Notes under the pieces: model-generated
The model's database searches: none
The model's input: the letters and a program-made list of their open reading frames with translations, nothing else
Told to the model about the DNA's origin: nothing
Translations under genes and position numbers: made by a program
Source: Ruminococcus sp.
GTDB taxonomy: Bacteria > Bacillota > Clostridia > Oscillospirales > Ruminococcaceae
Assembly: GCA_017960805.1 (NCBI GenBank)
Contig: JAGCYM010000104.1
Coordinates: forward strand, 1-51,609
Direction: 5' to 3'
Length of the DNA: 51,609 bases
Shown: piece by piece, positions 10,837 to 31,818 of the stretch
Layout: each line of letters opens with the position of its first letter
Position numbering within the stretch: the stretch's first letter is position 1

Positions 10837-10895
10837 GTTTGCGTAAAATGAGCTCTAAGATAACTAATTATCTGAGAGAAGAAAGGATGAGAATC

Positions 10896-11192
10896 ATGAC
10901 AGTTAACAAAGAAAGATCGAATACCACTTTTAACATCAGTATCAATGGAAGAGTTGATACAACAACTGCACCTGAACTTGAAAAAGAGCTGAAGTCTTGC
11001 TATGATGATTGCACTGAACTTATACTCAACTTTGCAGATGTTGAGTATATTTCTTCTGCCGGACTGAGAGTTCTGCTTTCTGCACAGAAGGCTATGAGCA
11101 AGCAGGGGAGCATGAAGCTTGTCAATGTTAGTTCTGATATAATGGAAGTTTTTGAGGTGACTGGGTTTTCAGATATTCTCACAATCGAGTGA
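10896..11192 (+). CDS. STAS-domain anti-sigma factor antagonist (SpoIIAA/RsbV type)
   Basis: A 98-residue single-domain protein of the partner-switching family. The hallmark V-E-Y-I-S-S-A-G-L-R-V-L (49-60) holds the phosphorylatable serine (Ser53 or Ser54). Known family role: the unphosphorylated form binds the RsbW-type kinase and frees its target, and kinase phosphorylation releases it. Start 10896 is chosen because AAAGGA lies at the right distance and the promoter start point excludes the upstream TTG. The RsbW-like kinase gene follows after 10 bp. No sigma factor gene is adjacent, so the final target is open. Confidence 0.9.
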   Translation: MTVNKERSNTTFNISINGRVDTTTAPELEKELKSCYDDCTELILNFADVEYISSAGLRVLLSAQKAMSKQGSMKLVNVSSDIMEVFEVTGFSDILTIE

Positions 11193-11202
11193 GGTGAATC
11201 AG

Positions 11203-11616
11203 ATGAAGGAACTGGAGCTGGAAGCATTGACAGATAATCTGTCAAAGGTACAAGCTTTTGTAGATGAACAGCTTGAAGAGGCAGGCTGTCCGATTAAGAT
11301 TCAGATTCAGATAGATATTGCAGTTGAGGAGATATTTATCAACATCGCACATTATGCTTATTCCACTGAAACAGGGAAGGCAACGGTTCGTATAGAGATA
11401 CTTCCTGATCCGCCTTCTGTTGATATTACTTTTATCGATAAAGGTATACCTTATGATCCGCTTGCTAAATCTGATCCGGATGTTACTCTTTCTGCGGAGG
11501 AACGTAAGATTGGCGGACTTGGTATTTTTATGGTCAAAAAGAGCATGGATGATGTGAAGTATCAGTATCTTGACGGACATAACATACTCACCCTGAAAAA
11601 AGGCCTGGTGATCTGA
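11203..11616 (+). CDS. RsbW/SpoIIAB-like serine-protein kinase
   Basis: A 137-residue GHKL-fold ATPase (HATPase_c_2). The N-box V-E-E-I-F-I-N-I (Glu43, Asn47), the D-K-G ATP loop (Asp79, Gly81) and the G-G-L-G-I-F lid (~104-109) are intact, so it should be active. Expected role: phosphorylates the STAS protein encoded just upstream and sequesters an unknown partner. The ATG at 11203, with GAGGTGA in front, is preferred over an in-frame GTG at 11194. Its stop overlaps the former start of the next reading frame, showing the kinase-phosphatase pair was once translationally coupled. A decayed second copy of its 3' end lies at about 12715-12802. Confidence 0.88.
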   Translation: MKELELEALTDNLSKVQAFVDEQLEEAGCPIKIQIQIDIAVEEIFINIAHYAYSTETGKATVRIEILPDPPSVDITFIDKGIPYDPLAKSDPDVTLSAEERKIGGLGIFMVKKSMDDVKYQYLDGHNILTLKKGLVI

Positions 11617-11910: not shown

Positions 11911-11988
11911 GAATAAAACTTCATTTATTATTGATGTCTTGGGTTAAGAAGAAAGGAATCAATAATTGTTTAATTCTGGAGGTAGAGC

Positions 11989-12306: not shown

Positions 12307-12317
12307 GGTGTTAGTGT

Positions 12318-12647: not shown

Positions 12648-12714
12648 TCACCGAAATTTGTCGGCGTAAATTTGTAGAAAATCTATCTAACACAAAGACG
12701 AGAGTGAATAATGT

Positions 12715-12802
12715 GAAAAGGCTGAAAAGTGAATGGAAGATGTGAAGTATTAGTACCTTGACGGACATAACATTCTCAAACTAAAAAAGGTCTGGTGATC
12801 TG
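12715..12802 (+). pseudogene. Remnant of a second RsbW-like kinase gene (3' end only)
   Basis: The DNA closely matches the last ~85 bases of the kinase gene at 11530-11616: it encodes Y-L-D-G-H-N-I-L and K-K-G-L-V-I just before the phosphatase start. It is interrupted by a TAG shortly after the block begins, and nothing upstream resembles the rest of the gene. Together with the remnant at 11616 it shows an ancestral tandem duplication of a kinase-phosphatase pair. The left boundary is approximate. Confidence 0.8.
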
Positions 12803-14956: not shown

Positions 14957-14973
14957 TATCTAAGGACAAAGCT

Positions 14974-16419
14974 ATGATTACATTTTTGATTGGACTTATT
15001 ATATTGTGTGTAGGAGGCTTTTGTTACGGAAGAATAACTGAAAAAGCAATGAAACCTTCCGACAGAAAAACTCCTGCTACAGAAAAATATGACGGTGTTG
15101 ATTTTGTTCCGATGAAGAAGTGGCGGAACAGTTTGATAGAGCTACTGAATATTGCCGGAACAGGACCTATCCTCGGCCCCATACAGGGCATCCTCTTCGG
15201 ACCGATTGCATTTATCACTATCCCTGTCGGATGTGTAATAGGCGGAGCATTTCACGATTATATGAGTGGAATGATTTCTGTACGCAATGACGGCGAACAG
15301 ATGCCATCACTAGTCAGGCGTTTTCTCGGCAAGTATATGTATGTATTGTATAATATCGTAGTGTGCCTGCTTCTCCTTTTGCTGGGAGTTGTTTTCATAT
15401 ACACTCCGGGGGACCTGTTTATCACGCAGATAATCGGTCAGGAGAGCACTCTCAAAAATCCTGTATTGTGGATAGTTTATGGTGTTATCTTTGCATACTA
15501 TATTATTGCTACTCTTCTTCCGATAGACAAGATAATCGGCAGGATATATCCTTTTTTTGGTGCGATACTCCTGATTTCTGCAATAGGCGTTTTCGTAGGC
15601 ATGTTCATAAAGGGCTACATGCTTGATGAAGTATGGGATGGTGGATTCTCACTTATAAATCCATATGGTGATCATTTCATTCCAATCTTTTTTGTAACTG
15701 TAGCATGTGGTATTGTTTCAGGATTTCATTCAACTCAGGCCACTCTTGTTTCGAGAACTATATCTGATGAACATGAGGGGAGAATGACATTCTACAATAT
15801 GATGATTCTCGAAGGCTTCATAGCTATGGTATGGGCTGCTGCTGCGATGGGAGCGGTAAATATAGGACTTGTCACTAACGACATGCTTCATGACAAAGCA
15901 ACATCAGTAGTCGGTATCATCTCAAAGGATATGCTTGGAAAAGTTGGAGGTATCATTGCAGTGATCGGCGTCATCGTACTTCCTATAACATCAGGAGATA
16001 CAGCTCTCCGTTCACTCAGGATAATTGTATCTGATGCTTTTCATATTGACACAACAAAGAAAAGGAACAAACTGCTCCTTGCGGTTGCAATCTTTGTGAT
16101 AGCGGCATCGATTCTTATATACGCCAAAGCAGATTCAAGCGGATTCAATGTACTGTGGAGATATTTCTCTTGGGCAAATGAATCAACTGCTGTATTTGCG
16201 TTTTCAATGATATGCATATACATGATGAAAAATAAGATGCCTTACATTATGGCATTGATTCCTGGAATGTTATATATGTTCATAGTCTGCAGCTACATAC
16301 TCAATGCACATATCGGATTCAATCTGCCGTGGAGTGTGAGTTATATTTTAGCGGGTATTCTGACTATAAGCTATGGTTTAGTGCTTGTATTTTACGGAAA
16401 GAAGCTAAGCAGAGAATGA
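14974..16419 (+). CDS. cstA: CstA-family carbon starvation transporter
   Basis: An integral membrane protein of 481 residues with many hydrophobic segments and the CstA core near the N-terminus (G-T-G-P-I-L-G-P-I-Q-G, then G-A-F-H-D-Y). CstA proteins take up pyruvate and/or peptides during carbon limitation. This is a short-type member (E. coli CstA is about 700 residues). It follows the sensor phosphatase by 17 bp in the same transcript. Co-transcription with a Cache sensor makes its substrate a candidate ligand for that sensor; this is inference. Confidence 0.88.
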   Translation: MITFLIGLIILCVGGFCYGRITEKAMKPSDRKTPATEKYDGVDFVPMKKWRNSLIELLNIAGTGPILGPIQGILFGPIAFITIPVGCVIGGAFHDYMSGMISVRNDGEQMPSLVRRFLGKYMYVLYNIVVCLLLLLLGVVFIYTPGDLFITQIIGQESTLKNPVLWIVYGVIFAYYIIATLLPIDKIIGRIYPFFGAILLISAIGVFVGMFIKGYMLDEVWDGGFSLINPYGDHFIPIFFVTVACGIVSGFHSTQATLVSRTISDEHEGRMTFYNMMILEGFIAMVWAAAAMGAVNIGLVTNDMLHDKATSVVGIISKDMLGKVGGIIAVIGVIVLPITSGDTALRSLRIIVSDAFHIDTTKKRNKLLLAVAIFVIAASILIYAKADSSGFNVLWRYFSWANESTAVFAFSMICIYMMKNKMPYIMALIPGMLYMFIVCSYILNAHIGFNLPWSVSYILAGILTISYGLVLVFYGKKLSRE

Positions 16420-16463
16420 ACTGAGTATTTCTAAAAAAAATTAGTGAAACGGAGGAAGACAAG

Positions 16464-17975
16464 ATGTCATTTGAAAAAAGGATTTACCGTTCTGATGCAG
16501 CAAATTGTGTGCTGTGTGGAGGCGCGCGCTGTGAGTCTGTCTGCTCCGTTAAGCTCCCGGCAAAGATACTTCGGGGAATATGGTTTGATAACAGCAGAAG
16601 TACAGCAGCGGATCTGCCGGAAGATAATCCTTGTATTAACTGTTCTGCTTCCTGTGAGGAAGCCTGTGTTAGATCAGGCAGGGTACCTATCCGAGAGCTG
16701 ATAATGAAACTGTACACTGATATCAGATCCGGACTTGATGTACCAGCTCCAAGTGATTATAGCAGACTGAAAGCAGATTTCTGTGGAATTGAGCTTGAGA
16801 ACCCTTTTCTATTGTCTTCATCTGTCGTAGCCAGCACATATGATATGTGTGCTAGAGCGTTTGAAGCCGGATGGGCCGGAGCTGCTTTCAAAACGATCTG
16901 TTCACTTGACATACATGAAGCTTCACCACGTTTTTCAGCAATTAAAGGCATAAACGGCGAGATCATAGGTTTCAAGAACATTGAGCAGCTTTCTGATCAC
17001 AGTGTCGCGGAAAATATGGAGATTTTCCGGAAACTGAAGCAGAACTATCCTTCAAAATTCATACTTGCATCAATCATGGGAAAGGATGAAGCTGAATGGG
17101 AGGAGCTAGCTGGATTATGTGAGCAGAACGGTGCAGATGCAGTCGAACTGAATTTTTCCTGTCCTAATATGGCAGAGGGGGGACTTGGTTCTGATATCGG
17201 ACAGATCCCTGAACTTGTTGAGCAGTTAACCAGAGCCGCAAAGCGTGGATGCAGTATACCTGTCCTTGCAAAGCTGACTCCTAATGTTGCATCAATGATA
17301 CCTGCCGGTGAAGCCGCAATGCGAGGCGGAGCCAATGGTATCGCTGCAATAAATACGATCAAGAGCATTACAGGAGTAAATCCTCATACATACGTTGCCG
17401 CCCCTGCTGTTCACGGAATGTCTGCGCTCGGAGGATACAGTGGAAATGCTGTTAAACCTATTGCGCTGAGGTTTGTCTCTGAGCTTGCAGGAGACAATGA
17501 GCTTAAAGGAATGCACATAAGCGGAATGGGCGGGATTGAAACCTGGAAGGATGCTCTTGAATTTATTCTGTTAGGATGCGGGTCAGTTCAGGTAACGACT
17601 GCTGTCATGCAGTATGGTTACAGGATAATTGATGATCTTAAAAGTGGGTTAAACTATTATTTAGCTGAAAAAGGATTCGGCAGTGTCAAAGAAGCAGTTG
17701 GTCTTGCGCTTGATGCAATCAGTGATACAACTGATGTTCTGGAACGTGATACTGTACTTTTTCCGGTATTTGACCATGATAAATGTATAAGCTGCGGACG
17801 ATGCTTGATCTCATGCAGCGATGGCGGTCACAGCGCGATTGAGCTGGATCAGTATGGAAAACCAAAGCTTATTGGAAGCAGATGCGTTGGCTGCCATCTA
17901 TGTCTTATTGTCTGTCCGGAAAGAGCTATAAAAAAGGCTAAAAAAAGAATAACAAGAAAAAATGGAATCCATTAA
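16464..17975 (+). CDS. Dihydropyrimidine dehydrogenase/DHODH-like Fe-S flavoprotein
   Basis: A 503-residue cytosolic redox protein. The N-terminal ~80 residues hold two four-Cys sets (Cys15/18/23/27 and 57/60/64/68), as in the iron-sulfur domain of DPD or GltD. A DHODH/PreA-type FMN barrel follows (~105-400), containing N-F-S-C-P-N (230-235) and A-K-L-T-P-N-V. Two C-terminal [4Fe-4S] motifs follow (C-I-S-C-G-R-C and C-V-G-C-H-L-C). The FAD/NADPH modules of full DPD are absent. The active-site Cys of DPD (in G-L-A-C-G-Q) is replaced by Ile245, so uracil reduction is doubtful. GGAGG precedes the ATG. The substrate is unknown; the electron partner could be the flavodoxin-fold protein downstream. 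Confidence 0.82.
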   Translation: MSFEKRIYRSDAANCVLCGGARCESVCSVKLPAKILRGIWFDNSRSTAADLPEDNPCINCSASCEEACVRSGRVPIRELIMKLYTDIRSGLDVPAPSDYSRLKADFCGIELENPFLLSSSVVASTYDMCARAFEAGWAGAAFKTICSLDIHEASPRFSAIKGINGEIIGFKNIEQLSDHSVAENMEIFRKLKQNYPSKFILASIMGKDEAEWEELAGLCEQNGADAVELNFSCPNMAEGGLGSDIGQIPELVEQLTRAAKRGCSIPVLAKLTPNVASMIPAGEAAMRGGANGIAAINTIKSITGVNPHTYVAAPAVHGMSALGGYSGNAVKPIALRFVSELAGDNELKGMHISGMGGIETWKDALEFILLGCGSVQVTTAVMQYGYRIIDDLKSGLNYYLAEKGFGSVKEAVGLALDAISDTTDVLERDTVLFPVFDHDKCISCGRCLISCSDGGHSAIELDQYGKPKLIGSRCVGCHLCLIVCPERAIKKAKKRITRKNGIH

Positions 17976-18017
17976 AGAAATGAGAAGAATATATTCTTAT
18001 GGCAGGAGGTACCTGTT

Positions 18018-18077
18018 TTGAAAGCACATAGAATGATCATAGCATTTGCTTTGATCTCTACTGCTGTTTTCATTTGA
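18018..18077 (+). CDS. Possible 19-residue hydrophobic peptide
   Basis: A TTG-initiated mini-ORF has an excellent AGGAGGT site 8 bases upstream and encodes a short basic start (K-A-H-R) and a hydrophobic run ending in Phe-Ile. It lies in the 135-bp gap between the Fe-S flavoprotein and reductase genes. It could be a translated leader, a membrane micropeptide or the stub of a lost secreted protein. Supported only by the ribosome binding site. Confidence 0.3.
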   Translation: MKAHRMIIAFALISTAVFI

Positions 18078-18110
18078 TATTTCCTGAATGAAATAACAGG
18101 GGAGGAAAAA

Positions 18111-18668
18111 ATGATACTATATATTAACTGCTGTGTTCGAAAAGATTCAAGAACTGACAGACTTGCAAGAGCTGTTCTGGAAAGAATGGGCTCTTATACT
18201 GAGCTTTTCCTTCCTTCTGTTGACCTGCATCCTCTGACAGAGGAAATGCTCGAAATGAGAACGGAACTTCTTGCTAAAGGTGCTTTTGATGATCCGATGT
18301 TCAGGTATGCAAGACAGTTTGCTGATGCAGATAAGATAATTATTTCAGCGCCGTTCTGGGATGGTTCTTTTCCATCAATCCTTAAAGTCTACATTGAAAA
18401 CATATATGCTGTAGGTATTGTGTCATGTTACGGAAATGACGGTATGCCTATAGGTATGTGCAAGGCAGATGAGCTGATATATGTTACAACTGCAGGCGGA
18501 CCATATATCCCTGATTTCAGCTATGGCTACATCAAAGCTATAGCGGAGCATTGCTTCGGGATTAAGCAGACTAAGCTGATAAAAGCAGAAATGCTCGATA
18601 TAGATGGTATGGATGCTGAAAAGATACTCGCTGATTCAATAGACAGTATTCAGGAAATGGAGGTATAG
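18111..18668 (+). CDS. Flavodoxin-fold NAD(P)H oxidoreductase (Flavodoxin_2 / azoreductase-like)
   Basis: A 185-residue protein with the Flavodoxin_2 pattern: an N-terminal strand followed by a phosphate-binding loop (C-C-V-R-K-D-S-R-T), S-A-P-F-W-D in the position of the flavin-contacting P-M-W/Y-N loop of AcpD-type enzymes, and T-A-G-G-P-Y near residue 131. It should bind FMN and reduce quinones, azo compounds or a protein partner. GGGGAGG precedes the ATG. It lies between a Fe-S flavoprotein and the STAS-kinase gene, which follows after 3 bp with its ribosome site inside the end of this gene. Confidence 0.82.
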   Translation: MILYINCCVRKDSRTDRLARAVLERMGSYTELFLPSVDLHPLTEEMLEMRTELLAKGAFDDPMFRYARQFADADKIIISAPFWDGSFPSILKVYIENIYAVGIVSCYGNDGMPIGMCKADELIYVTTAGGPYIPDFSYGYIKAIAEHCFGIKQTKLIKAEMLDIDGMDAEKILADSIDSIQEMEV

Positions 18669-18671
18669 CTT

Positions 18672-19823
18672 ATGAGCGCTAATATTATAAAGCTGACAGG
18701 CAGAATAGACTCAGGCAATGCTTCCGAATGGGAACAGAAAATAATGCAGCAAATTGATGCAGAAACAGAAAACGCTTTCGACGCATCAAATCTTGAATAT
18801 ATTTCCAGTGCAGGTCTGAGGGTTCTGATGAAAGTCAGGAAGCAGGCTGTAAATGAAATGCGGATATTTGATGTTTCTCCCGAAGTGTATGATATATTCG
18901 ATATGACTGGTTTTACAGAGCTTTTCAAAGTAGAGAAGCGCCTCCGTGAGTTATCTGTTGATGGCTGTGAGATCATCGGAAAAGGATTCTACGGTACTGT
19001 TTATCGTATTGATCCAGAGACTATAGTTAAGGTATATAATGAACCCGACAGCATACCTATAATTCAAAACGAGCAGCGTCTTGCAAAGCGTGCTTTCGTC
19101 AAAGGTGTGCCTACAGCAATTTCTTATGATATTGTCAGGGTAGGTGACAGCTACGGTTCGGTATTTGAGCTTCTCAAAGCAAGCTCATTTAATGATCATT
19201 TGATCAATGAACCAGCGAATTTCGACGTGCTTCTTAAAAAATATGTTGATTTTTTGAAAGTTGTACACAGCGCAGAAATGGACCCTGATACACTGCCTAT
19301 GGCCAGAGATACTTTCATAAGCTATCTTGATGTTATAAAAGAATATATCACTCAGGAACAGAATGACAGACTTAAAGAAATGTTGTCAGCTATGCCTGAT
19401 GATCTCCATATGATACACGGCGATTTTCAGATGAAAAACGTAATGCTTGTTGATGATGAACCAATGCTCATTGATATGGAGACAATAGCTACAGGTCAGC
19501 CTATATTTGATCTGCAGGCACTATATGTTACATATATTGCTTTCAGCGAGGATTGTCCGGATAATCTCAGTAGTTTTCTTGGCATTTCTGATGATCTGCG
19601 TGAACCGATATGGAATAGCATAATAGAGAATTATTATAATACTGTTGACACAAAAGAGCGTTCTATAATAAATGATAAGATCCAATTGCTTGCGACTATA
19701 CGTTTCCTTTATTTGATAGCCGTATCGGATCTGAAAAAAGGTGAACTTGGTGAAAAGCGCATACAGCGTTCTAAAGAGCATATTGGAGAACTACTTGACC
19801 GTATAAATTCTTTTGTGATATGA
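18672..19823 (+). CDS. STAS domain fused to an aminoglycoside-phosphotransferase-like kinase
   Basis: 383 residues. Residues 1-93 are a STAS domain with L-E-Y-I-S-S-A-G-L-R-V-L (41-52), nearly identical at the phospho-site to the stand-alone STAS protein at 10896. Residues ~96-383 are a small-molecule kinase of the APH/choline-kinase fold: G-K-G-F-Y-G-T-V-Y-R (103-112), lysine in I-V-K-V-Y, catalytic H-G-D-F-Q-M-K-N (249-256) and metal site I-D-M-E (267-270). It resembles the TIGR02172 paralogous family known from fibre-degrading gut bacteria. The STAS part could be phosphorylated by the RsbW-like kinase and so gate the C-terminal kinase; the substrate is unknown. GGAGGT lies 8 bases before the ATG. 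Confidence 0.87.
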   Translation: MSANIIKLTGRIDSGNASEWEQKIMQQIDAETENAFDASNLEYISSAGLRVLMKVRKQAVNEMRIFDVSPEVYDIFDMTGFTELFKVEKRLRELSVDGCEIIGKGFYGTVYRIDPETIVKVYNEPDSIPIIQNEQRLAKRAFVKGVPTAISYDIVRVGDSYGSVFELLKASSFNDHLINEPANFDVLLKKYVDFLKVVHSAEMDPDTLPMARDTFISYLDVIKEYITQEQNDRLKEMLSAMPDDLHMIHGDFQMKNVMLVDDEPMLIDMETIATGQPIFDLQALYVTYIAFSEDCPDNLSSFLGISDDLREPIWNSIIENYYNTVDTKERSIINDKIQLLATIRFLYLIAVSDLKKGELGEKRIQRSKEHIGELLDRINSFVI

Positions 19824-19896: not shown

Positions 19897-22800
19897 ATGA
19901 AAAAAACTCAAATAAAAGATTCAGTGAGAAACATAAGGAAACAATTTGTTTCCTATCTTTCTATCATTATCATCGCATTTCTTGCTGTTGTTGCATATCT
20001 TGGAATTAATTATTCTTCTGAGAGCATTTCTCAGAATGCCAGTCTTTTCTACAATGATAAGAATTATCGTGATGTCGAGATAGTATCAACACTTCTTCTG
20101 TCAGAAGATGATCTGTCTGCAATACGTTCAGTTGATGGAGTAAGTGATGCCGAGGGTATATATTTAACCAGCGGAATTATTGAAAAAGACAATAATCACA
20201 GAAGCGTTGATGTTATTTCATTGACGGAGCGTATAAATACGTTACAACTTCTTCAAGGTGATTTCCCTCAAAATGATCATGAATGTGTAATTGAAAAATA
20301 TCTGGCAGATGCTCTTAAATATAATATTGGAGATACCATTCAAATAAAAAACAAAGACGGAAATATTCCTAATTATCTTATCAATAATACCTTTATTATA
20401 ACTGGAATAGCGTTACATCCGGATCACGGTGGCAATTCATTTGCTGTTCCAGGAAATCGTAATGTTCTTATTGCTCCGGAGGCATTCGATAAAGAAGCAC
20501 TCGACAATTGCTATATGAAAGCATTGGTCGATATAAAAACAGATGAAACCAATCGCTTTAGCAAAAAATATTCTTCCAAAGTCAATGATACAGTGGAAAA
20601 GTTGCGATATCTTGCAGATGAACGTGAAACTTTGAGATATGAAAGTATAATAGGAAGATATCAGACCGAGATTGATAATGGTCAGAACAAACTTAACTAT
20701 GCAAAAGAAGAACTTGATAAGGCACGCAGCGAACTTGACGATAATCAGAAGAAACTGGATGACGCTAAAACAGAGCTTGAAAAAGCCAGAAAGAAACTGG
20801 ATAGCGGAATAGAAGAAGCAGAATCATCCAAAAAGGAATTGGACAGTGCTCTAAAGAAACTCAACGACGGTGAATCAAAGATTGCTGCTTCTAAACAACA
20901 GCTCGATGATGCTAAAGCACTTTTGAATGAAAGCAAGACTGAACTAGATAAAGCTAAATCAAAACTTGACCGCGGGCGTGAAGAACTGATTTCAAGTTAT
21001 CAGCAGATTGAAGAAGCTAAGTCAGAAATGCGTAATGAGCTGCGTCAGGAAATAACGTCAGCTGATAAAAATAATGAACACGAAATAAATTGGTACGAAG
21101 GATCAGAAGAAATTGACCCAGATGATCCTTCAGCTTCAGCAACTGCTTTTCCGGTTACTGACGAAATAACTATTGACTTGACAAAGCCATTGCGTGAAGG
21201 AGTAACAGAACTGGTTGATGAAATTGACATGACTCCGGAAGAACAGAATGAACTGATAATTAAATACAATATTAAGATTCCTGAGGATAAAGACCCTAAG
21301 GAAGCTCTTATCGACAAGATATGCGAAGAGTTAGAGCCTCAATATAATGAGCTTTCTTCAGCAGCGATTCAATGGGATGAACAACATCAGATCTATATTG
21401 AAGGACTTGATGAATATAATCGCGGAATGGATAAATACACTCAAGGTCTTGCCGAGTATGAAAGCGGCCTTGAAAAGTATACTTCAAGCCGCAAGGAGCT
21501 CGATGATGGCTGGAAACAGTATAATGAAGGCCTTGAAAAATACAATGCAGCAAAGAAAGAACTATCATCTGGTCAGGAAACATATGACGATAAACAGAAA
21601 GAATACCAGGACGGCCTTTCAAAATTTGAGGACGGCAAAAATCAATATGAAGAAGGTGTTTCTGAATACACATCAGGTGAAGAGAAGATTGAAAAAGCCT
21701 GGGATGACATGACAAATCAGGACAAATGTCATTGGATAATCCTTGATATGGAGGGCAACACATCCTATCTGCTTATTCAGAACAATATCCAGAGTATTAG
21801 GAATATGGGCATAACTTTTTCGCTCGTTTTTATTCTTGTCGGTGCAATGGTAATCTATGCAACACTTGGCAGAATGGTTGATGAACAGCGTAAGCTCATA
21901 GGCGCTACAAAAGCACTCGGTTTCTTCAATTGGGAAATACTCGGGAAATACCTTACTTATGGTATTTCCGGCACACTTCTTGGTATGTTCTTTGGAACAG
22001 CTGCTTCATATTATATTTTCCAGAAACTAATATCCAGTGCTTATGATAATATGTATACTTTTGAAGTGGATAAGCTTGGATTTAATATGTTAATGACACT
22101 GATCGTCTGGATAGCTGGTATTGCTGTATCAGGAATGACAGTTTCTATTGCATGCTCGAATCTGATACGTTCAACAGCTATCAGTCTGTTGCAGGGGAAA
22201 GTCCCACTGAAAAAATGGAAAAGTAGTAGAATTAATCGTTCTACTTCGTTGTATGGAAGACTTGTGTTGCTAAATATACTTTCTAGTAAGAAAAGAGTTA
22301 CTGTATCAATAGTCAGCATAGCAGGCTGCTGCACACTGCTTGTAGCTGGATTCACATTAAAGTATAGTGTACGAAAAGCGATAGACAATCAATTCAGCAG
22401 TATCCAGAACTATGACCTGCAATTTGAATTTGATAGTAAGATTTCTTCATCAGAACAGAAAATACAGGACATACTCAATGAAGCCGGAACAGAATGGACA
22501 GAAACAGGACAAAAAACGATCTATTATGATGCAGGTGGAAAGATTTCAGCAACAACTCTTATATGCGGTGATATTTCTGAGTTTTTATATTTCTATAATG
22601 CTGTCGATGTTGATACGGGTAAGCAAATATCAGATGACGGTACAGGGATATGGATATTCAACCGTGCTGCTGAGATAAATCATTTTTCTACCGGAGATGA
22701 AATCTCACTTTTTGATAATTCGATGAATGAATATAAGGCCCAGATCTCAGGAATTTATAATCTTTATATGGGCAGACAGATGTTAATGTCCAGAGAAGCT

Positions 22801-23358
22801 TACAAGGAAGTATTCGAAGTCGAAGCAAAGAATAATAAATTTTATGTTAAAACTAACGATGCAGATAAGGAAGCGTTGATTGAGCAAATCAAGAATATTG
22901 AAGGCATTGAGAAAATTAAGGTTGTTGAAGAGGACCGTGATTATTATCTGTCAAATACTGAAGTACTAAATTTCTTAGCTTTGCTTATGACTGGAATGGC
23001 TGGAATGATGGCATATTTTATTCTTCTCAACAATGTTAATATGTATGTGAATCAGAAAAAGAAGGAACTCATCATAATGCGTGTGAACGGATTTTCAATA
23101 CGTGAAGTATTAGGTTATGTTTCATATGAGCTTATTGCAACCACAGTGACAGGTATTCTTATCGGACTTGTAACAGGTTCACTGTTAGGATACCGCATGA
23201 TAAAACTGATGGAAACAGATATGTTGCATTTTGTAAGAAGCGTCCAGTTTGAGGCATGGGGATTTGCAATAGTGATAACAATACTATTCTCTTTAGTTAT
23301 CGGATTTATTGCTCTCAGAAAAATACCACACTACAAGTTGACAGATGCCACTCAGTAA
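19897..23358 (+). CDS. FtsX/MacB-type ABC permease with long extracellular coiled coils
   Basis: 1153 residues. TM1 ~18-40, an extracellular region (MacB_PCD-like ~45-240), then a Lys/Glu/Asp-rich coiled coil (~255-380) made of short heptad-like repeats (E-L-D, K-L-D). An acidic segment and a second coiled coil (~495-610) rich in Y-x-x-G-L-x-K-Y follow. Next come the first FtsX TM bundle (~635-790), a second extracellular domain (~830-1010) and the last TM bundle (~1015-1150). Such permeases usually work mechanically with a LolD-type ATPase, here encoded 12 bp downstream, to export or release cell-surface molecules. Weak ribosome site. The coiled-coil DNA is repetitive but coding throughout. 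Confidence 0.88.
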   Translation: MKKTQIKDSVRNIRKQFVSYLSIIIIAFLAVVAYLGINYSSESISQNASLFYNDKNYRDVEIVSTLLLSEDDLSAIRSVDGVSDAEGIYLTSGIIEKDNNHRSVDVISLTERINTLQLLQGDFPQNDHECVIEKYLADALKYNIGDTIQIKNKDGNIPNYLINNTFIITGIALHPDHGGNSFAVPGNRNVLIAPEAFDKEALDNCYMKALVDIKTDETNRFSKKYSSKVNDTVEKLRYLADERETLRYESIIGRYQTEIDNGQNKLNYAKEELDKARSELDDNQKKLDDAKTELEKARKKLDSGIEEAESSKKELDSALKKLNDGESKIAASKQQLDDAKALLNESKTELDKAKSKLDRGREELISSYQQIEEAKSEMRNELRQEITSADKNNEHEINWYEGSEEIDPDDPSASATAFPVTDEITIDLTKPLREGVTELVDEIDMTPEEQNELIIKYNIKIPEDKDPKEALIDKICEELEPQYNELSSAAIQWDEQHQIYIEGLDEYNRGMDKYTQGLAEYESGLEKYTSSRKELDDGWKQYNEGLEKYNAAKKELSSGQETYDDKQKEYQDGLSKFEDGKNQYEEGVSEYTSGEEKIEKAWDDMTNQDKCHWIILDMEGNTSYLLIQNNIQSIRNMGITFSLVFILVGAMVIYATLGRMVDEQRKLIGATKALGFFNWEILGKYLTYGISGTLLGMFFGTAASYYIFQKLISSAYDNMYTFEVDKLGFNMLMTLIVWIAGIAVSGMTVSIACSNLIRSTAISLLQGKVPLKKWKSSRINRSTSLYGRLVLLNILSSKKRVTVSIVSIAGCCTLLVAGFTLKYSVRKAIDNQFSSIQNYDLQFEFDSKISSSEQKIQDILNEAGTEWTETGQKTIYYDAGGKISATTLICGDISEFLYFYNAVDVDTGKQISDDGTGIWIFNRAAEINHFSTGDEISLFDNSMNEYKAQISGIYNLYMGRQMLMSREAYKEVFEVEAKNNKFYVKTNDADKEALIEQIKNIEGIEKIKVVEEDRDYYLSNTEVLNFLALLMTGMAGMMAYFILLNNVNMYVNQKKKELIIMRVNGFSIREVLGYVSYELIATTVTGILIGLVTGSLLGYRMIKLMETDMLHFVRSVQFEAWGFAIVITILFSLVIGFIALRKIPHYKLTDATQ

Positions 23359-23370
23359 GGAGGAATAGTT

Positions 23371-24594
23371 ATGTTAAATAAAAAATCAGCCATCTTGAAT
23401 GCAACGATGGAAATAATGGAAGAGCTCCTCCAGACTGATGATGTATATGAAGTTCTTTCAAAGTGTCTTGATATAATTGTAGATCTGGTCAAATGCGAAG
23501 CTGCTGTTGTTTGGATCGCTGATGGTAAGCAGGAGAGACTTTATCCGCTGTTTCACAGAGGCCCCGCTGATATAACAGGGGTAAGCGTTCAGAATGGCAG
23601 TGGCACAGAGGGACAATGTGTCACGAACGGGGAAACGATATTACTTAATGATACTGACAAAACCGATGATTTTGAGGGATCCGTCTTCGACGGGAACGGT
23701 TTCAAAACTAATTCTGTGATGTGCCTTCCATTGAAAGTACATAAAAAAACATATGGATGTTTTCAGATAATAAACAAGCTCGATACTGATGGATTTGACG
23801 AAGATGAACGTGTCATTTGTGAGCGTATGGCAGCACTTGCTGCTATGTCGATTGATGAGATGGGCGTTGAACTCGAAATCCCTGAGAAGAAAAATGTTCT
23901 AATATCACTCAAAGGAGTTACAAGGGAATTTCCTTCGGGTGATGGTGTAGTGAAGATTCTAAAGGGAATAGACCTTGATATCTATGAAAATGAATTTGTA
24001 GTTATCCTCGGAGAATCAGGTTGTGGAAAGAGTACAATGCTGAATATAATCGGTGGCATGGATCAGCTCACTGACGGAACTTTACTCATCGATGATAAGG
24101 ACTATTCACATCCTTCAGAGAAGGAGCTGACTGAGTACAGACGCTTGAAGCTTGGTTTCATTTTTCAGTCCTACAACCTTATGCCGAATCTTACCGCAAA
24201 GGAGAATCTGCAATTTATTGCTGATCTTGTACCAGATCCTCTTCCCGTGGATACGGCACTTGAAAAGGTCGGAATGGCCCACCGCGCGGATAATTACCCC
24301 TCACAGCTTTCAGGAGGTCAGCAGCAGCGAATAGCTATTGCTCGTGCCCTTGTAAAGCAACCGAAGGTCATACTTGCTGACGAGCCTACTGCTGCACTTG
24401 ACCTTCAAACAAGTCTTGAAGTGCTTGACGCTATCGAAACTATAGTCCGCAACAAAACTGCTACTGTCATAATGGTTACACACAATCCGGAAATAGGAAA
24501 AATAGCAGATCGTGTAATTAAGTTAAGAGCAGGAAAGGTCGCAAGTATAAAGACAAATCCTAATCCACTTCATGCTAAAGATCTTACATGGTAA
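23371..24594 (+). CDS. GAF domain fused to a LolD/MacB-type ABC ATPase
   Basis: 407 residues. Residues ~10-165 form a GAF domain (C-L-D-I-I-V-D-L-V start, G-V-S-V-Q-N-G, V-M-C-L-P-L, then I-I-N-K-L). Residues ~175-400 are an ABC ATPase: Walker A G-E-S-G-C-G-K-S-T (214-222), Q-loop F-Q-S-Y, signature L-S-G-G-Q-Q-Q-R, Walker B L-A-D-E-P-T, H-loop T-H-N. The usual LolD-type ATPase is about 230 residues and has no sensor. The GAF domain suggests gating by a cytosolic ligand or by redox state. Excellent AAGGAGG site; it pairs with the FtsX permease just upstream. Confidence 0.9.
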   Translation: MLNKKSAILNATMEIMEELLQTDDVYEVLSKCLDIIVDLVKCEAAVVWIADGKQERLYPLFHRGPADITGVSVQNGSGTEGQCVTNGETILLNDTDKTDDFEGSVFDGNGFKTNSVMCLPLKVHKKTYGCFQIINKLDTDGFDEDERVICERMAALAAMSIDEMGVELEIPEKKNVLISLKGVTREFPSGDGVVKILKGIDLDIYENEFVVILGESGCGKSTMLNIIGGMDQLTDGTLLIDDKDYSHPSEKELTEYRRLKLGFIFQSYNLMPNLTAKENLQFIADLVPDPLPVDTALEKVGMAHRADNYPSQLSGGQQQRIAIARALVKQPKVILADEPTAALDLQTSLEVLDAIETIVRNKTATVIMVTHNPEIGKIADRVIKLRAGKVASIKTNPNPLHAKDLTW

Positions 24595-26465: not shown

Positions 26466-27944
26466 ATGATGAATATGCTTGAAGAAGCCGTTATCTACGC
26501 AACTGTAATGCATCAGGGCAAGGTTCGCAAGTTCAATGGTATACCGTACATACTTCACCCTATGGAGGTGGCTCAGATACTGTCTACCATGACTGATGAT
26601 GCGGAGATTATAACAGCAGGTATCCTCCACGATATCGTTGAGGATACTGACGGTACTCTTAAAGAAATAGAGAAACGTTTCGGAAAAAGAGTCGCCGCTC
26701 TGGTAGATTCTGAATCTGAACGTTCTTATCCCGATGAGAACAAGAGCACTTCGTGGCAGCGCCGCAAGGAAGAATCGCTCATTGTACTGAAAAACAGCAG
26801 TGATATCGGCGTGAAGATGCTGTGGCTTGCGGACAAGCTTGCAAATATCCGCTCACTTGCAAGAGAATATTCAGAAAATGGCGAGTCAATTTGGAAAATG
26901 CTTCATCAAAGCGACCCTGCAATACAGTGCTGGTATTACAAGACCATTGCTGAAACTGTTGAGCTCTCGTTGAATAAGACCGGAGCTTTCAAAGAACTTA
27001 TTAAACACATCAACTTCATATGGCCCGGTACCTTTGATTCGGACAAAGCAAGATATAAGAAATATCGTGAAGTATCCGTTGACGGCTGTAAATTGCTTGG
27101 CAGAGGAGCTAAAGGCGATGTTTACCGATATGATGACGAACTTGTTATCAAGGTGTTCAACCAGAATAATACATATCACGATGTTGAGCAGGAAATAGCT
27201 CTCAGCCGCAAAGCCTTTATACTTGGTATGCCGACAGCAATATCATTTGGCATTGTATCAGTTGGCGAACGTTACGGAGCAATGTACGAGCTTGTGGAAT
27301 CAGAAACATTTTCACAGTGTATTGCGCGAGCTCCCAGTCAGGTCGAAACTTACGCGAAAATGATGGCAGAGCTTGCTCACACTATCCATAGTATAGAAGT
27401 CACAGAAGAGGACGCTTTTTCAGATGTTTCCGAAAGATATCTGAACTACGTCAGAAGCGGAATCGCTTATGAGAATGAAACTCTTGCCGAAAAGTGCAGA
27501 AAGCTGGTCGAGGGTATTTCACATTCTGATACACTTGTTCACGGAGACTTCCATACCGGAAATGTATTTCTGCAAAATGGCGAGCCGCTACTGATTGATA
27601 TGGACAGAGTATCGACTGGTCATCCTATTGCTGAACTGAGTGATCTGTATTATTTCTATGTGGTTCTGGGAGAGGAAGATGCTGCTGTTGTAGAGAAATT
27701 CATGGGATTCTCCTATGAGACGGCAAAACAGTTCTATCGCTATTTTTTGATAAACTATCTCGGAACTGATGATGAGAGCAAGTTCAATGAAGTTACGGAA
27801 AAAGCATCACTTCTTTGCTATATACGCATTATTCGCAAGATAAGGAAAAAAGTCCCTTTTTCAGAAACTGAACATCAAAAAATAAAATACTACATTGACA
27901 GAATTACCGAGCTGACAGATAAACTTGATACATTGTTATTCTAA
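26466..27944 (+). CDS. RelA/SpoT-like HD domain fused to a phosphotransferase-like kinase
   Basis: 492 residues. Residues 1-~180 are an HD domain of the (p)ppGpp-hydrolase type: A-T-V-M-H-Q-G-K-V-R-K (His16), H-P (31-32), L-H-D-I-V-E-D-T (54-61, metal and catalytic residues), and L-A-D-K-L-A-N-I-R (121-129). No synthetase or TGS domain follows. Residues ~203-492 form an APH-type kinase closely related to the one at 18672: V-D-G-C-K-L-L-G-R-G (205-214), G-D-V-Y-R, H-G-D-F-H-T-G-N (359-366) and I-D-M-D (377-380). Both halves look catalytically intact. A link between alarmone or nucleotide turnover and small-molecule phosphorylation is inferred. AAAGGA lies upstream; VOC genes follow. Confidence 0.87.
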   Translation: MMNMLEEAVIYATVMHQGKVRKFNGIPYILHPMEVAQILSTMTDDAEIITAGILHDIVEDTDGTLKEIEKRFGKRVAALVDSESERSYPDENKSTSWQRRKEESLIVLKNSSDIGVKMLWLADKLANIRSLAREYSENGESIWKMLHQSDPAIQCWYYKTIAETVELSLNKTGAFKELIKHINFIWPGTFDSDKARYKKYREVSVDGCKLLGRGAKGDVYRYDDELVIKVFNQNNTYHDVEQEIALSRKAFILGMPTAISFGIVSVGERYGAMYELVESETFSQCIARAPSQVETYAKMMAELAHTIHSIEVTEEDAFSDVSERYLNYVRSGIAYENETLAEKCRKLVEGISHSDTLVHGDFHTGNVFLQNGEPLLIDMDRVSTGHPIAELSDLYYFYVVLGEEDAAVVEKFMGFSYETAKQFYRYFLINYLGTDDESKFNEVTEKASLLCYIRIIRKIRKKVPFSETEHQKIKYYIDRITELTDKLDTLLF

Positions 27945-27990: not shown

Positions 27991-28365
27991 ATGAAAATCA
28001 CTACTTTTAACCCACTGATCGTTACAGGCAACGCCGATGCAACTATCAAACTCTTTGAGGCACTCGGATTCGAGAGACGACATAAGATAACCGTTAATTC
28101 TGGCGGCAATGACATTGTAAATGTCCGTATGAAGAACGCTGACGGCTTCTATGTTGATGTTGCTCAGGTTGACGGGGTTACGCGCGATATGACAATGATA
28201 CGCATGAACGTTGATGATTTTGAAGAGGCTTATAACTTCCTCAGAGGAATGGGATTTAAGAATCCCAAGGGAGACCATACAGTTGATACAAAGTCTAATA
28301 GATCTGCCTGTCTCATTTCGCCGACCGGCTTTGCATTCGACCTCTGCCAGCACATAAAGGACTAA
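27991..28365 (+). CDS. VOC/glyoxalase-fold protein, copy 1
   Basis: 124 residues with the vicinal-oxygen-chelate pattern: strand T-T-F-N-P, helix I-K-L-F-E-A-L-G-F, central V-R-M-K-N-A-D-G-F-Y-V-D, and a C-terminal S-P-T-G-F-A-F-D-L. Metal-ligand His/Glu positions of glyoxalase I are not evident, so it may bind rather than transform a ligand. The start at 27991 is set by AAGGAGG. It lies 46 bp after the HD-kinase gene and is probably co-transcribed. Confidence 0.8.
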   Translation: MKITTFNPLIVTGNADATIKLFEALGFERRHKITVNSGGNDIVNVRMKNADGFYVDVAQVDGVTRDMTMIRMNVDDFEEAYNFLRGMGFKNPKGDHTVDTKSNRSACLISPTGFAFDLCQHIKD

Positions 28366-28394
28366 TACTACACAATATCAAGGAGTGAAAATAT

Positions 28395-28772
28395 ATGAAA
28401 ATAACGACTTTTAACCCACAGATAATCACAAAAAACGCAGAGCCTCTTGTTGATCTGTTTAAAGAACTCGGATTTGAAAAGCGTCACAATCAGGAAGGTA
28501 TAGGTGAAATGGGGGTTACCGGCATCCGCATGAAGGACGCTAACGGCTTCTATTTGGATATTTCTCAGGTCAATGCACCTGTTCCTCAGGATCAGGCGGC
28601 GATCAGAATGAATGTGGACAATTTTGATGAAGCTTTCAAGCTGCTTACAGAGCACGGATTTAAAAACTTCTATAATGATAAAACTGTGAATACACCTACT
28701 TCAAAATCAGCTATAATGATATCTCCATCAGGTTTTGTTATCAATCTTATCCAGCATATAAAGAAAGACTAA
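28395..28772 (+). CDS. VOC/glyoxalase-fold protein, copy 2
   Basis: 125 residues, a paralogue of the preceding gene (both begin M-K-I-T-T-F-N-P; shared R-M-K-x-A-x-G-F-Y, I-R-M-N-V-D, I-S-P-S-G-F). Recent tandem duplication is likely. CAAGGAG is upstream of ATG. VOC proteins act as dimers, so a heterodimer is possible. The substrate is unknown. Confidence 0.8.
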   Translation: MKITTFNPQIITKNAEPLVDLFKELGFEKRHNQEGIGEMGVTGIRMKDANGFYLDISQVNAPVPQDQAAIRMNVDNFDEAFKLLTEHGFKNFYNDKTVNTPTSKSAIMISPSGFVINLIQHIKKD

Positions 28773-29409: not shown

Positions 29410-30342
29410 TTACTCTTCTATTTTGATCTGTATATCACCGGATGCTGTATCTATATCCATTGTGTTGTTTCCAGATCCGCTTATGTATGTATAATTCTTT
29501 TTGATAAGTGAAATTTCAGAATCAAAGTCTCCGGAAGCTGTATCAACATCAGCAGAGAACTCAGCATCCTTTGGTAAATGGATCGTGATATCACCTGATG
29601 CTGAATCCAGTTTCATTTCAGATGGTACTTTTTTGAAATGAAGTTCACATTTTCCACTTGATGTATCAGCAGATATTTTTTCAGAGCTATTTATATTCAG
29701 TTTGATTTCACCGGAAGACGTGTCAAAGTTGAGTTTATTAACGGTTTCTGCATTTACAGTGATGTCACCTGATGAAGCATCAGCTTCTATGCTTTCAGAT
29801 TCGCCTTTCTGATCGAGGATAATGTCACCTGAAGAAGAATCAAACTTGAATGTGTCTGCTGAGCAGTTGCTGAGCTTAGCTGTACCGGATGATGTATCGA
29901 CCTTGATGGTTGTGGCAGTAACGTCATTGAATGAAACATTTGCTGAAGATCCGTCGTAGTTGAGTTTATCGAGTTCTATAGTCTTAGGAAGACTGACCTG
30001 GAGTTTCTTTTCAGCATTAGTCAGATTGAAGTTCTCACCTGATTTACAGTAACGGATATGAAGAGTTTTTCCGTCAAGCCATGTATGTACTTTCTGTGAG
30101 TCCTTGAGCTCAACATTGCATGTTTCAGTAACTGATACAGTATCTTTATCATGATATGATACATTGACGTCTCCGGAGCTCCAGTCTATATCGATTGCAG
30201 TGATCTCGTCCTTTGTTTCGAAATCTCCGGCTGTGTAATTATTGCCGTGATCATACATTGTTACATTGGCAACACAGCTTGAGAGGCAGAGAATCATAAT
30301 AGCGGTCGTAATCGCAATAATAAGTTTAGATGTCATTTTCAT
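29410..30342 (-). CDS. DUF4097 beta-helix lipoprotein
   Basis: 310 residues: lipoprotein signal with L-S-S-C (Cys22), then a long array of beta-solenoid turns with the repeated D-x-S-S-G-x-I / A-S-G-D motif typical of DUF4097. Extracytoplasmic, membrane-anchored. Its start overlaps the anti-sigma factor stop by 4 bp (ATGA), so the three genes sigma, anti-sigma and DUF4097 form one unit. DUF4097 proteins often sit next to envelope-stress regulators; direct function unknown. AGGAGA precedes the start. Confidence 0.85.
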   Translation of the reverse strand: MKMTSKLIIAITTAIMILCLSSCVANVTMYDHGNNYTAGDFETKDEITAIDIDWSSGDVNVSYHDKDTVSVTETCNVELKDSQKVHTWLDGKTLHIRYCKSGENFNLTNAEKKLQVSLPKTIELDKLNYDGSSANVSFNDVTATTIKVDTSSGTAKLSNCSADTFKFDSSSGDIILDQKGESESIEADASSGDITVNAETVNKLNFDTSSGEIKLNINSSEKISADTSSGKCELHFKKVPSEMKLDSASGDITIHLPKDAEFSADVDTASGDFDSEISLIKKNYTYISGSGNNTMDIDTASGDIQIKIEE

Positions 30343-31334
30343 TTTTTAATCTCCTTTTTGTCCTTTTTAGAAAGTCTGATGAATCCGAATATAGCAAATA
30401 TTGCAGCTGTAATAATTCCTGTCACAAGAACGATCCAGCAGATCATACTGTTGAGACTGTCTGTGGTAGTGAGCGTTGTATCAAATCCTACGAAGTGAAG
30501 TCCTTGGCCTAGCAGCAGATATACTATCGTATCATTGAAGAAGTAGATGAGCGCTGCTGCGAGTATGCATGAGGCTGTTTTCAGCAGGCCATTCCATTTT
30601 GGGAGCCTGATCAGAGCAAACATTGCCCACATGAAGAGCAGGGGAGGAAGTGAGAATGCAAGAGCAGCCTGGAAGAAGAATAATGATTTTACCTTTAAGC
30701 CGATAAATAGCATCATAAGTGCAAATGTCAGGGTATATGTCCCGACAACAGTAAGTGCCTTGTTGTTCCCCAGCAGTTTTGAAACAGGCTTGGTGTTGAC
30801 AACAAGCGGCATGAACGGTATAGAGAGACCGAACAGAACTGCCGAAGATGCGATAAAGAACCAGTTACTGCGTGAATATATGCTGCATACAGCAAAGAGA
30901 ATAAAGAGACTTGCGGTAAAAGATCCTATAGTCCAGAGGAATTTGTTATCAGGTGCCATCAGGGGCACGATTATGAGTGATGCAGGAATAAGCATCGAAG
31001 CGAGCACTATGAAGAACCATGTAAGTCCGGCTCCTGTTGCAATGTTTACGATGAGGCAGACTAGAATCGGTATTGCGAATATCGCTCCGATAATGCTGCC
31101 TGCTATTGCGGAACGGCGTTTGAAGAATTTTGCCTGCTTGGATATTACTTCTGTGCGTTCCTTTGCGATTGCTTTGTCTATGGTTTCATCGCATTTCTTC
31201 ATATTCTCAAGTACTCCGGCGCATGCAGGGCACTCGCTCAGGTGCTGTTCGACTGCTTCTGCGCTTGACTTGCTGCAGGCTTTGTCCATATATAGCGGGA
31301 GCAGATCACTGATCATATCACAGTTATATTTCAT
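30339..31334 (-). CDS. Zinc-finger anti-sigma factor with membrane domain
   Basis: 331 residues. The N-terminal ~60 residues match a zf-HC2 anti-sigma domain (C-D-M-I-S-D-L-L-P-L-Y-M-D and H-L-S-E-C-P-A-C). The rest contains about eight hydrophobic segments, more than the single one of classical anti-sigma factors. Expected role: holds the ECF sigma factor at the membrane until an envelope signal arrives. It overlaps the sigma gene by 11 bp. Confidence 0.87.
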   Translation of the reverse strand: MKYNCDMISDLLPLYMDKACSKSSAEAVEQHLSECPACAGVLENMKKCDETIDKAIAKERTEVISKQAKFFKRRSAIAGSIIGAIFAIPILVCLIVNIATGAGLTWFFIVLASMLIPASLIIVPLMAPDNKFLWTIGSFTASLFILFAVCSIYSRSNWFFIASSAVLFGLSIPFMPLVVNTKPVSKLLGNNKALTVVGTYTLTFALMMLFIGLKVKSLFFFQAALAFSLPPLLFMWAMFALIRLPKWNGLLKTASCILAAALIYFFNDTIVYLLLGQGLHFVGFDTTLTTTDSLNSMICWIVLVTGIITAAIFAIFGFIRLSKKDKKEIKK

Positions 31335-31818
31335 TTTTATCCATCCTTTCCTTGAGCTTTAGTCTGGCACGATGATATGTAACTCTAGCCCATGTTTCGG
31401 TCTTCTGGAAGATCGCTCCTATCTGTGTGAAGGAGAGCTCTCCGAATACACGGAGCTCAAAGACTTCTTTGTACGGTTCTTCCATGTCGTGCAGTAGCAT
31501 ATGTATCCTGAATGACGTCTCTGAGTCAGTGATGCTCTGCTCGATATCGGTGCCGCTGTCTGCGATAGGCTCGTCAGGCTCGTCCTGAAAACGTGATGAT
31601 CTGCGTGTTTCGTCTATAAAGGAGTTTTTTGCTATAGCGCAAAGCCAGGATAAACATTCGGATTCGCCACGGAAGGTCTGCTTGGTAGTCATAGCCTTAT
31701 AAAATGTTTCCTGAGTTATCTCCTGAGCTTTATTGCTGTCCTTAGCGAGTGTCATCACATAGGAATATACCTGCATATAACAGGTTTCGTACAGCTTTTC
31801 GACAGTCTTTTTGTCCAA
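31324..31818 (-). CDS. ECF-family RNA polymerase sigma factor
   Basis: 164 residues with sigma region 2 (A-Q-E-I-T-Q-E-T-F, then F-R-G-E-S-E-C-L-S-W-L) and region 4 (F-E-L-R-V-F-G-E-L-S-F-T-Q-I-G). TTG start with GGAGGTG 6 bases upstream; the nearby ATG is out of frame. First gene of a sigma/anti-sigma/DUF4097 operon under its own ECF-type promoter. Confidence 0.92.
   Translation of the reverse strand: MDKKTVEKLYETCYMQVYSYVMTLAKDSNKAQEITQETFYKAMTTKQTFRGESECLSWLCAIAKNSFIDETRRSSRFQDEPDEPIADSGTDIEQSITDSETSFRIHMLLHDMEEPYKEVFELRVFGELSFTQIGAIFQKTETWARVTYHRARLKLKERMDKNEI

What the first reader, a model, noticed from the sequence alone, without database searches (positions are those of the whole stretch)
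26466..27944. RelA/SpoT-type HD domain fused to the same kinase family
The HD half keeps all metal and catalytic residues of (p)ppGpp hydrolases but lacks a synthetase domain. The second half is closely related to the kinase half of the STAS fusion (V-D-G-C-x-x-x-G-x-G, H-G-D-F). Two copies of one kinase family in 10 kb with different signalling domains suggest a modular regulated kinase family tied to stress signals.
Basis: partly seen in the sequence, partly recalled or inferred. Interest (0 to 1): 0.75.

Follow-up and report, generated by a model that had tools for sequence, protein, structure and literature searches.

The report
Alarmone-hydrolase–kinase fusion from a signalling operon
A gut-bacterium protein joins an alarmone-hydrolase-type enzyme to a small-molecule-type kinase; related bacteria carry the two as neighbouring genes inside a phosphorylation-switch operon, which suggests a so far undescribed way of wiring a stress switch to enzymes.

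Summary
Window 26466-27944 encodes 492 aa: an HD_4 (alarmone-hydrolase type) half with its catalytic residues and no synthetase match, plus an APH-fold kinase half. The fusion recurs in the 80 relatives kept of 172 found (one interrupted by a stop), in Bacillota, Actinomycetota and Spirochaetota.

The larger finding lies outside the given coordinates. For 13 of 53 unfused kinase genes examined, a separate HD gene lies in the same operon, commonly with STAS, SpoIIE-type phosphatase and RsbW-type genes or domains. Two Treponema operons hold the fusion itself beside these three. The window carries them at 10839-19823. A PHP phosphoesterase gene stands in other operons; HD and PHP never share one (0 of 55 genes; 3 more agree), though a relatedness-aware test is not significant.

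Best reading: an output enzyme of a partner switch, kinase substrate unknown. The boldest reading not excluded is a writer/eraser pair for a ribose-phosphate signal. Ten capped literature searches listed no description. The TIGR02172 label fails its cut-off.

The parts
26466..27035 (+). HD half of the fusion (aa 1-190): HD_4, small-alarmone-hydrolase type, catalytic residues kept
27054..27941 (+). APH-fold kinase half of the fusion (aa 197-492): glycine loop, K229, HGDFHTGN, LIDMD
10839..11192 (+). Stand-alone STAS protein (mechanical TTG start at 10839; ATG at 10896 more likely by eye), SSAGLR motif
11194..11616 (+). RsbW-type HATPase (PF13581); 68% identical over 133 aa to the HATPase domain fused behind STAS-kinase in L146
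12803..14956 (+). dCache-SpoIIE (PP2C-type) phosphatase sensor, 717 aa
18111..18668 (+). Flavodoxin_2 protein; relatives in 3 of 55 fetched module regions and beside STAS-kinase in L034 and L035
18672..19823 (+). STAS-kinase protein (383 aa), second kinase of the family
19897..23358 (+). ABC permease (FtsX/MacB_PCD type); relative near STAS-kinase-RsbW in L191 only (1 of 55 regions), so its link to the module is weak
23371..24594 (+). GAF-ABC ATPase; 56% identical relative in L191 beside the permease; link to the module weak
27991..28365 (+). VOC/glyoxalase-like small protein 46 bp downstream (Pfam match below cut-off); VOC-like genes lie in 34 of 83 fusion loci
28395..28772 (+). Second VOC/glyoxalase-like small protein

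Best explanation
The protein is a natural fusion of two enzymes that relatives encode as separate neighbouring genes: a small-alarmone-hydrolase-type HD enzyme and an APH-fold kinase. The kinase family is an output of a partner-switching circuit. Shown by sequence: STAS proteins with the phosphorylatable serine, an RsbW-type HATPase and a SpoIIE-type phosphatase are encoded with STAS-kinase or HD-kinase, and lie in the window too. Inferred: the phosphatase (sensor) and the RsbW-type kinase set the phosphorylation state of STAS; STAS controls the APH-fold kinase by binding; and the HD enzyme removes a 3'-pyrophosphate (or a ribose 2'/3'-phosphate) from a nucleotide in the same pathway. In the fusion the HD stands where STAS stands in STAS-kinase, so hydrolase and kinase would work as one bifunctional enzyme. 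The kinase substrate is not known.
For: Both active sites are kept in 77 fusion proteins. A separate HD gene is in the operon of 13 of 55 kinase genes, several overlapping STAS-kinase or within a few bases of it (L187 -47, L179 -62, L145 +1), and again in L310. Fused and operon-linked HDs with one orphan HD (L285) are one side of a branch, support 65/95, against 15 other SAH rows. In 391 class genomes the eight best HD matches are fused to or beside the kinase; the ninth is not. Fused kinases form one clade, 17 rows, 100/100. Treponema L092: STAS > HD-kinase > SpoIIE > RsbW, gaps 24, 46, -17; L084: HD-kinase > STAS > SpoIIE > RsbW, gaps 81, 11, -13. The window holds STAS, RsbW, SpoIIE and STAS-kinase at 10839-19823; its RsbW is 68% identical to a fused one. 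STAS serine motif 58 of 58, kinase HxDxxxxN 63 of 65, and LHDxxED plus (A/G)DKLxN 13 of 13 in separate HDs (first-histidine pattern 11 of 13).
Against: Partner-switch genes lie within the fetched flanks of only 18 of 80 fusion loci, and in 4 of 11 fusion genomes the fusion is the only kinase of the family found at 1e-25, so it may work alone. One related HD (L285) has no kinase nearby. 21 of 55 kinase genes have neither HD nor PHP in the operon, though some end at a contig edge and L253 has PHP beyond the chaining distance. The tree support for one HD group is moderate. The RsbW-type protein may act on a distant sigma factor instead.
Confidence: 0.5

Rival explanations
1. The HD half is mainly a sensor: alarmone binding (with slow hydrolysis as reset) gates the kinase, which phosphorylates a protein or metabolite, so the fusion reads (p)ppGpp directly.
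For: The HD occupies the N-terminal place of STAS, a regulatory domain, and the stretch between the halves is strongly conserved. Fusion genomes also carry long Rel-size and small synthetase frames, so alarmones are probably present.
Against: Catalytic residues are kept almost without exception, and in other operons an unrelated enzyme class, PHP, is found and HD is not, which suits an enzyme better than a sensor.
Confidence: 0.22
2. The kinase half is a toxin-like enzyme that phosphorylates tRNA, nucleotides or a translation factor, and the HD half is a fused antidote, as SAHs counter toxic synthetases.
For: SAHs are often found with toxic synthetases for self-resistance (abstract of PMC9765508). 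STAS/RsbW-like pairs are known to control a toxin enzyme, VapKSC (passages of PMC13373217). The fusion is patchy (3 of 60 same-genus genomes, some incomplete) and has crossed phyla. In Treponema JC4 it is followed by a HATPase-like gene and a RelA/SpoT synthetase.
Against: The synthetase neighbour was found in 1 of 136 loci scanned. 19 of 55 kinase genes have PHP and no HD, and 21 neither. Defence models match only weakly.
Confidence: 0.12
3. An ordinary metabolic or detoxifying small-molecule kinase (antibiotic, sugar or choline type) that happens to be joined to a housekeeping hydrolase and spreads as a useful gene.
For: The nearest solved kinases are hygromycin-B kinase, YtaA, choline kinase and APH chains, all weak. 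Cross-phylum spread and VOC-like neighbours in 34 of 83 loci would suit a detoxification gene.
Against: Recurrent STAS/HATPase fusion and SpoIIE operon context; no solved-structure match is better than 4.9e-5.
Confidence: 0.12

Closest known systems
Small alarmone hydrolases, MixSpo/RelH group (Lmo0812, RelH of C. glutamicum and L. levettii)
   Same: HD_4 domain, catalytic motifs, no synthetase; best solved matches; group names from passages of PMC10434055
   Different: SAHs are typically 180-210 aa; here the HD is fused to a kinase, its unfused relatives sit in partner-switching operons, and they separate from 4yf1 and 7qoe in the tree
RsbU/RsbV/RsbW and SpoIIE/SpoIIAA/SpoIIAB partner switches
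   Same: SpoIIE-type phosphatase, STAS with conserved serine, RsbW-type HATPase
   Different: STAS, and often the HATPase, is fused to an APH-fold kinase (STAS-KIN-RSBW in 27 of 55); no listed sigma factor within 15 kb of the kinase in 20 other genomes (list cut off, some contigs shorter)
CapK/CapS and VapK/VapS/VapC (STAS plus anti-sigma-type kinase with non-sigma outputs)
   Same: Anti-sigma-type kinase phosphorylates a STAS protein whose output is a repressor or a VapC-like nuclease (passages of PMC13373217)
   Different: Outputs there are DNA binding or a nuclease; no APH-fold kinase, SAH or PHP enzyme is mentioned in the passages seen
TIGR02172 (Fibrobacter paralogous family)
   Same: Aligns over the kinase half, 112.2 bits
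   Different: Below the curated cut-off of 228.2; model of 226 positions covers the kinase only; 0 papers in the library name it
3',5'-nucleoside bisphosphate phosphatase / RNase RNM (PHP family)
   Same: Best NCBIfam matches of the PHP protein of L190, 105.5 and 101.1 bits; nearest solved chains include 3e0f, 9etk, 2yb1 and 7ug9
   Different: Below cut-offs of 400 and 375; substrate here unknown
SAHs that also act on NADPH (XccSAH, Mesh1)
   Same: XccSAH hydrolyses alarmones and, less efficiently, NADPH to NADH (abstract and passages of PMC9765508)
   Different: Words 'kinase' and 'fused' do not occur in that paper's main text; NADPH activity of the present HD not tested

Membership tests
Small alarmone hydrolase (SAH) | HD_4 domain matching RSH hydrolases, no SYNTH domain | tested here: met
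   PF13328 85.3 bits against cut-off 27.2, no PF04607 match listed for the protein
Small alarmone hydrolase (SAH) | Catalytic and metal residues kept | tested here: met
   All kept in the window; 77 of 77 for H31, H55, D56, E59; D60 67 of 77
Small alarmone hydrolase (SAH) | Stand-alone protein of about 180-210 aa | tested here: not met
   492 aa fusion; unfused operon relatives are 188-200 aa
Small alarmone hydrolase (SAH) | Placement inside the MixSpo/RelH group | tested here: inconclusive
   Nearest solved chains are of that group, but kinase-linked HDs separate from 4yf1 and 7qoe in the tree
Small alarmone hydrolase (SAH) | Hydrolysis of (p)ppGpp | not testable with these tools
   needs an enzyme assay
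APH phosphotransferase superfamily (PF01636) | Model above cut-off; HxDxxxxN and a second Asp motif | tested here: met
   52.7 bits against 23.2; H359, D361, N366, D378 77 of 77
TIGR02172 | Score over the curated cut-off of 228.2 bits | tested here: not met
   112.2 bits
Partner-switching module | STAS with phosphorylatable serine, RsbW-type HATPase and SpoIIE-type phosphatase encoded together | tested here: met
   Window 10839-14956 and 18672-19823; STAS motif 58 of 58
Partner-switching module | Cognate sigma factor as output | tested here: inconclusive
   No listed Sigma70_r2 match within 15 kb of the kinase in 20 other genomes; list cut off and some contigs short
Partner-switching module | Phosphorylation-dependent partner exchange | not testable with these tools
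   needs biochemistry
toxSAS-type toxin-antitoxin | Synthetase gene beside the SAH | tested here: not met
   Not in the window; a relative of the JC4 synthetase found in 1 of 136 loci, JC4 itself
Aminoglycoside resistance kinase | Clear match to a characterised antibiotic kinase | tested here: not met
   Best solved match of the kinase profile is E 4.9e-5 over 65 positions

The most novel reading that the evidence does not exclude
The kinase writes and the HD (or, in other lineages, the PHP enzyme) erases a ribose 2'- or 3'-phosphate on a nucleotide, so the module is a partner-switch-controlled nucleotide second-messenger system, and the window fusion is its writer and eraser in one chain.
Probability: 0.18. 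Interest if true: 0.92.

Novelty: new variant of a known kind. Interest (0 to 1): 0.72.

Why it matters
Known partner switches end, as far as I recall, in sigma factors or a few other regulators; CapK/CapS and VapKSC are recent non-sigma cases. Here the same switch parts are fused to and encoded with a kinase, and the kinase with an alarmone-type hydrolase. If confirmed, two bacterial stress circuits, partner switching and alarmones, would meet at enzyme level in gut bacteria, and the HD/PHP alternation would make the unknown kinase product searchable.

Tried and rejected
Defence reading: PADLOC gave only weak matches (Csx1 18.1 bits, MkoA 14 bits). Plasmids and phages: no record covers 80% of the protein, and each of the 20 rows shown matches the HD half only. 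Promoter and terminator scans around the gene gave about what shuffles give. A conserved neighbourhood of the fusion was sought: VOC-like genes (and ORFs that overlap them on the other strand) apart, the widest cluster lies in 12 loci. Long Rel proteins, on a long branch, fell beside the fusions in the first HD tree (85/57); I read this as a long-branch effect and rebuilt without them, a choice made after seeing the result. HDs of fusions and operons without L285 are not one clade in the best tree; an AU test does not reject it (p 0.156). HD/PHP exclusion: the hypergeometric P of 4.7e-4 ignores relatedness; the tree-aware pair test is not significant (median p 0.25, range 0.125-1, too few pairs to reach 0.05). 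A fresh sample meant as a test gave only three new kinase genes: one HD, one PHP, one neither. The control for partner-switch genes near fusions (0 of 44 loci, 157 kb) is weak: the control loci are short, mostly the gene itself, and L200 and L285 are one place counted twice. After re-reading I raised the toxin rival from 0.10 to 0.12, because VapKSC shows partner-switch proteins controlling a toxin.

Full report
Observation. The ORF at 26466-27944 (+) encodes 492 aa without a stop. Residues 8-139 match HD_4 (85.3 bits) and 209-407 match APH (52.7 bits), both above cut-off. The HD half aligns best to Lmo0812 (4yf1), then 7qoe, Rel 1vj7 and 7qoc (profile search). The matching residues of Rel are kept; their roles are recalled. 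In 77 fusion proteins (window and 76 loci; four loci were missed by that ORF map), H31, H55, D56, E59 and the kinase residues K229, H359, D361, N366 and D378 are invariant; D60 varies in 10. A second scan found an ORF with both domains in 83 of 83 loci (window, 80 loci, L143, L189); that of L045 starts behind a stop at codon 17.

Spread. A scan of genome contigs found 172 relatives and kept the best 80, matching over nearly the whole length, best segments 66-82% identical; many titles name rumen or other gut samples of ruminants. Of 79 fusion rows in a quick tree, 61 are Bacillota, 9 Actinomycetota (one clade, 99), 5 Spirochaetota (at least two places) and 4 in no group; on this midpoint-rooted tree the two smaller phyla lie among Bacillota rows. 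Within the window's genus 3 of 60 genomes hold the full fusion (some are incomplete). Patchiness plus nesting argues for transfer between phyla. Wrongly binned contigs are possible, but records not marked as MAGs, such as Treponema sp. JC4 and Oribacterium strains, carry it too.

The kinase family. With a kinase profile (A2), 24 of 391 class genomes and 46 of 394 order genomes match at 1e-25. Of the 30 loci given for, 26 are STAS-kinase (6 with a C-terminal RsbW-type domain), 3 HD-kinase and 1 a bare kinase beside a SpoIIE-type gene. Against this, matches of the wider TIGR02172 model are mostly short ORFs.

The operons. I fetched 55 larger regions: 15 of the 31 places, 41 of the 55 (one shared), favouring close matches, in 54 regions, plus one region with an HD and no kinase (L285). 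They hold 55 kinase genes: STAS-KIN-RSBW 27, STAS-KIN 25, HD-KIN 2, KIN 1. In the operon (same strand, gaps up to 400): RSBW 37, SpoIIE-type 28, PHP 19, HD 15 (13 separate, 2 fused), a HATPase-like protein 13 (my name; no Pfam match), MATE-like 10 (my name), DUF218 membrane protein 10, flavodoxin 3 (families). HD and STAS-kinase genes overlap or nearly touch in several. So the fusion joins genes that lie side by side in relatives. The places left out include more distant kinases, for which PHP was not looked for.

HD and PHP. HD in 15, PHP in 19, both in 0, neither in 21 of 55. Of the 21, several end at a contig edge and L253 has PHP beyond the chaining distance. On the kinase tree HD/PHP needs at least 5 changes; in the quick tree HD loci L177 and L180 lie inside PHP-rich clades. 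The simple probability is 4.7e-4, but the tree-aware test is not significant. Three further genes agree. The PHP protein's nearest named families act on 3'-phosphorylated nucleotides or RNA ends, below their cut-offs (activities from family names and partly recalled). PHP motif HxH..SDG is kept in 17 of 20 PHP ORFs. This is the reason for the writer/eraser reading; it is suggestive only.

The window. The other parts lie upstream of the finding: STAS 10839-11192, RsbW-type 11194-11616 (68% identical to the fused domain of L146), dCache-SpoIIE 12803-14956, flavodoxin 18111-18668, STAS-kinase 18672-19823. They are not one tight operon here: other genes lie between SpoIIE and flavodoxin, and 6.6 kb lie between STAS-kinase and the fusion. 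The close relative L035 has RsbW, SpoIIE, flavodoxin and STAS-kinase in one tight operon, with the fusion divergent 321 bp away. In Treponema L092 and L084 the fusion itself is in an operon with STAS, SpoIIE and RsbW; in JC4 it is followed by a HATPase-like gene and a RelA/SpoT synthetase. Partner-switch genes occur in 18 of 80 fusion loci and 0 of 44 short control loci (control weak).

Trees. Fused HDs are one clade (100/99); fused and operon-linked HDs with L285 are one side of a branch (65/95) against 15 others. Fused kinases are one clade (100/100, 17 rows).

Mechanism. Shown: gene content, fusions, conserved active sites. Inferred: that STAS controls the kinase, that the HD hydrolyses an alarmone or ribose phosphate, and that both serve one pathway. 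A RelA/SpoT synthetase domain was found in 14 of 15 genome handles, all but G087 (G008 and G1114 give the same places, so they look like one genome); the window's own incomplete genome gave one weak match only. No listed sigma factor lies within 15 kb of the kinase in 20 other genomes, but that list was cut off and some contigs are shorter.

Literature. TIGR02172: 0 papers. Nine more searches, on SAH with phosphotransferase, HD with aminoglycoside phosphotransferase, STAS with phosphotransferase, partner switching with hydrolase or ppGpp, PHP, and SAH with anti-sigma terms, listed no paper whose title or visible abstract describes this module; some searches showed only 15 of 1,486, 12 of 198 and 10 of 154 papers. 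I saw passages and one section of PMC10434055, passages of PMC3153485, PMC8256260 and PMC13373217, and the abstract and passages of PMC9765508. [quoted passage not shown] The library holds open-access papers only.

Noticed in passing
window 11537-13049: Direct repeats (267 nt at 76% and 64 nt at 86%, spacing about 1187) put a truncated copy of the SpoIIE-gene start and two small ORFs (11989-12306, 12318-12647) between the RsbW-type gene and the full SpoIIE gene; L035 has the two genes 4 bp apart.
   Followed up: partly
G000:C8:16097-16869 (L003): A broken second copy of the fusion's kinase part (67% identical over 179 aa, stops elsewhere in the stretch) lies next to three VOC-like genes in the same genome.
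   Followed up: no
window 27991-28772; 34 of 83 fusion loci: Small VOC/glyoxalase-like genes, often in tandem, are the most recurrent neighbours of the fusion; Pfam matches are below cut-off.
   Followed up: partly
L145 329-3825: In G087 the RsbW-HD-STAS-kinase operon is followed by genes that look like hrcA, grpE and dnaK (by eye).
   Followed up: no
L143 2562-3074: A MazG-family pyrophosphohydrolase gene lies 8 bp behind the fusion in G343.
   Followed up: no
L204 88-2046: Another SAH-type HD sits at the C-terminus of a 652 aa protein whose first part looks like an ADP-ribosylglycohydrolase (by eye).
   Followed up: no
window 30339-31818: An ECF-sigma-like ORF and a putative membrane anti-sigma ORF (by eye) lie about 2.4 kb behind the fusion, on the other strand.
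   Followed up: no
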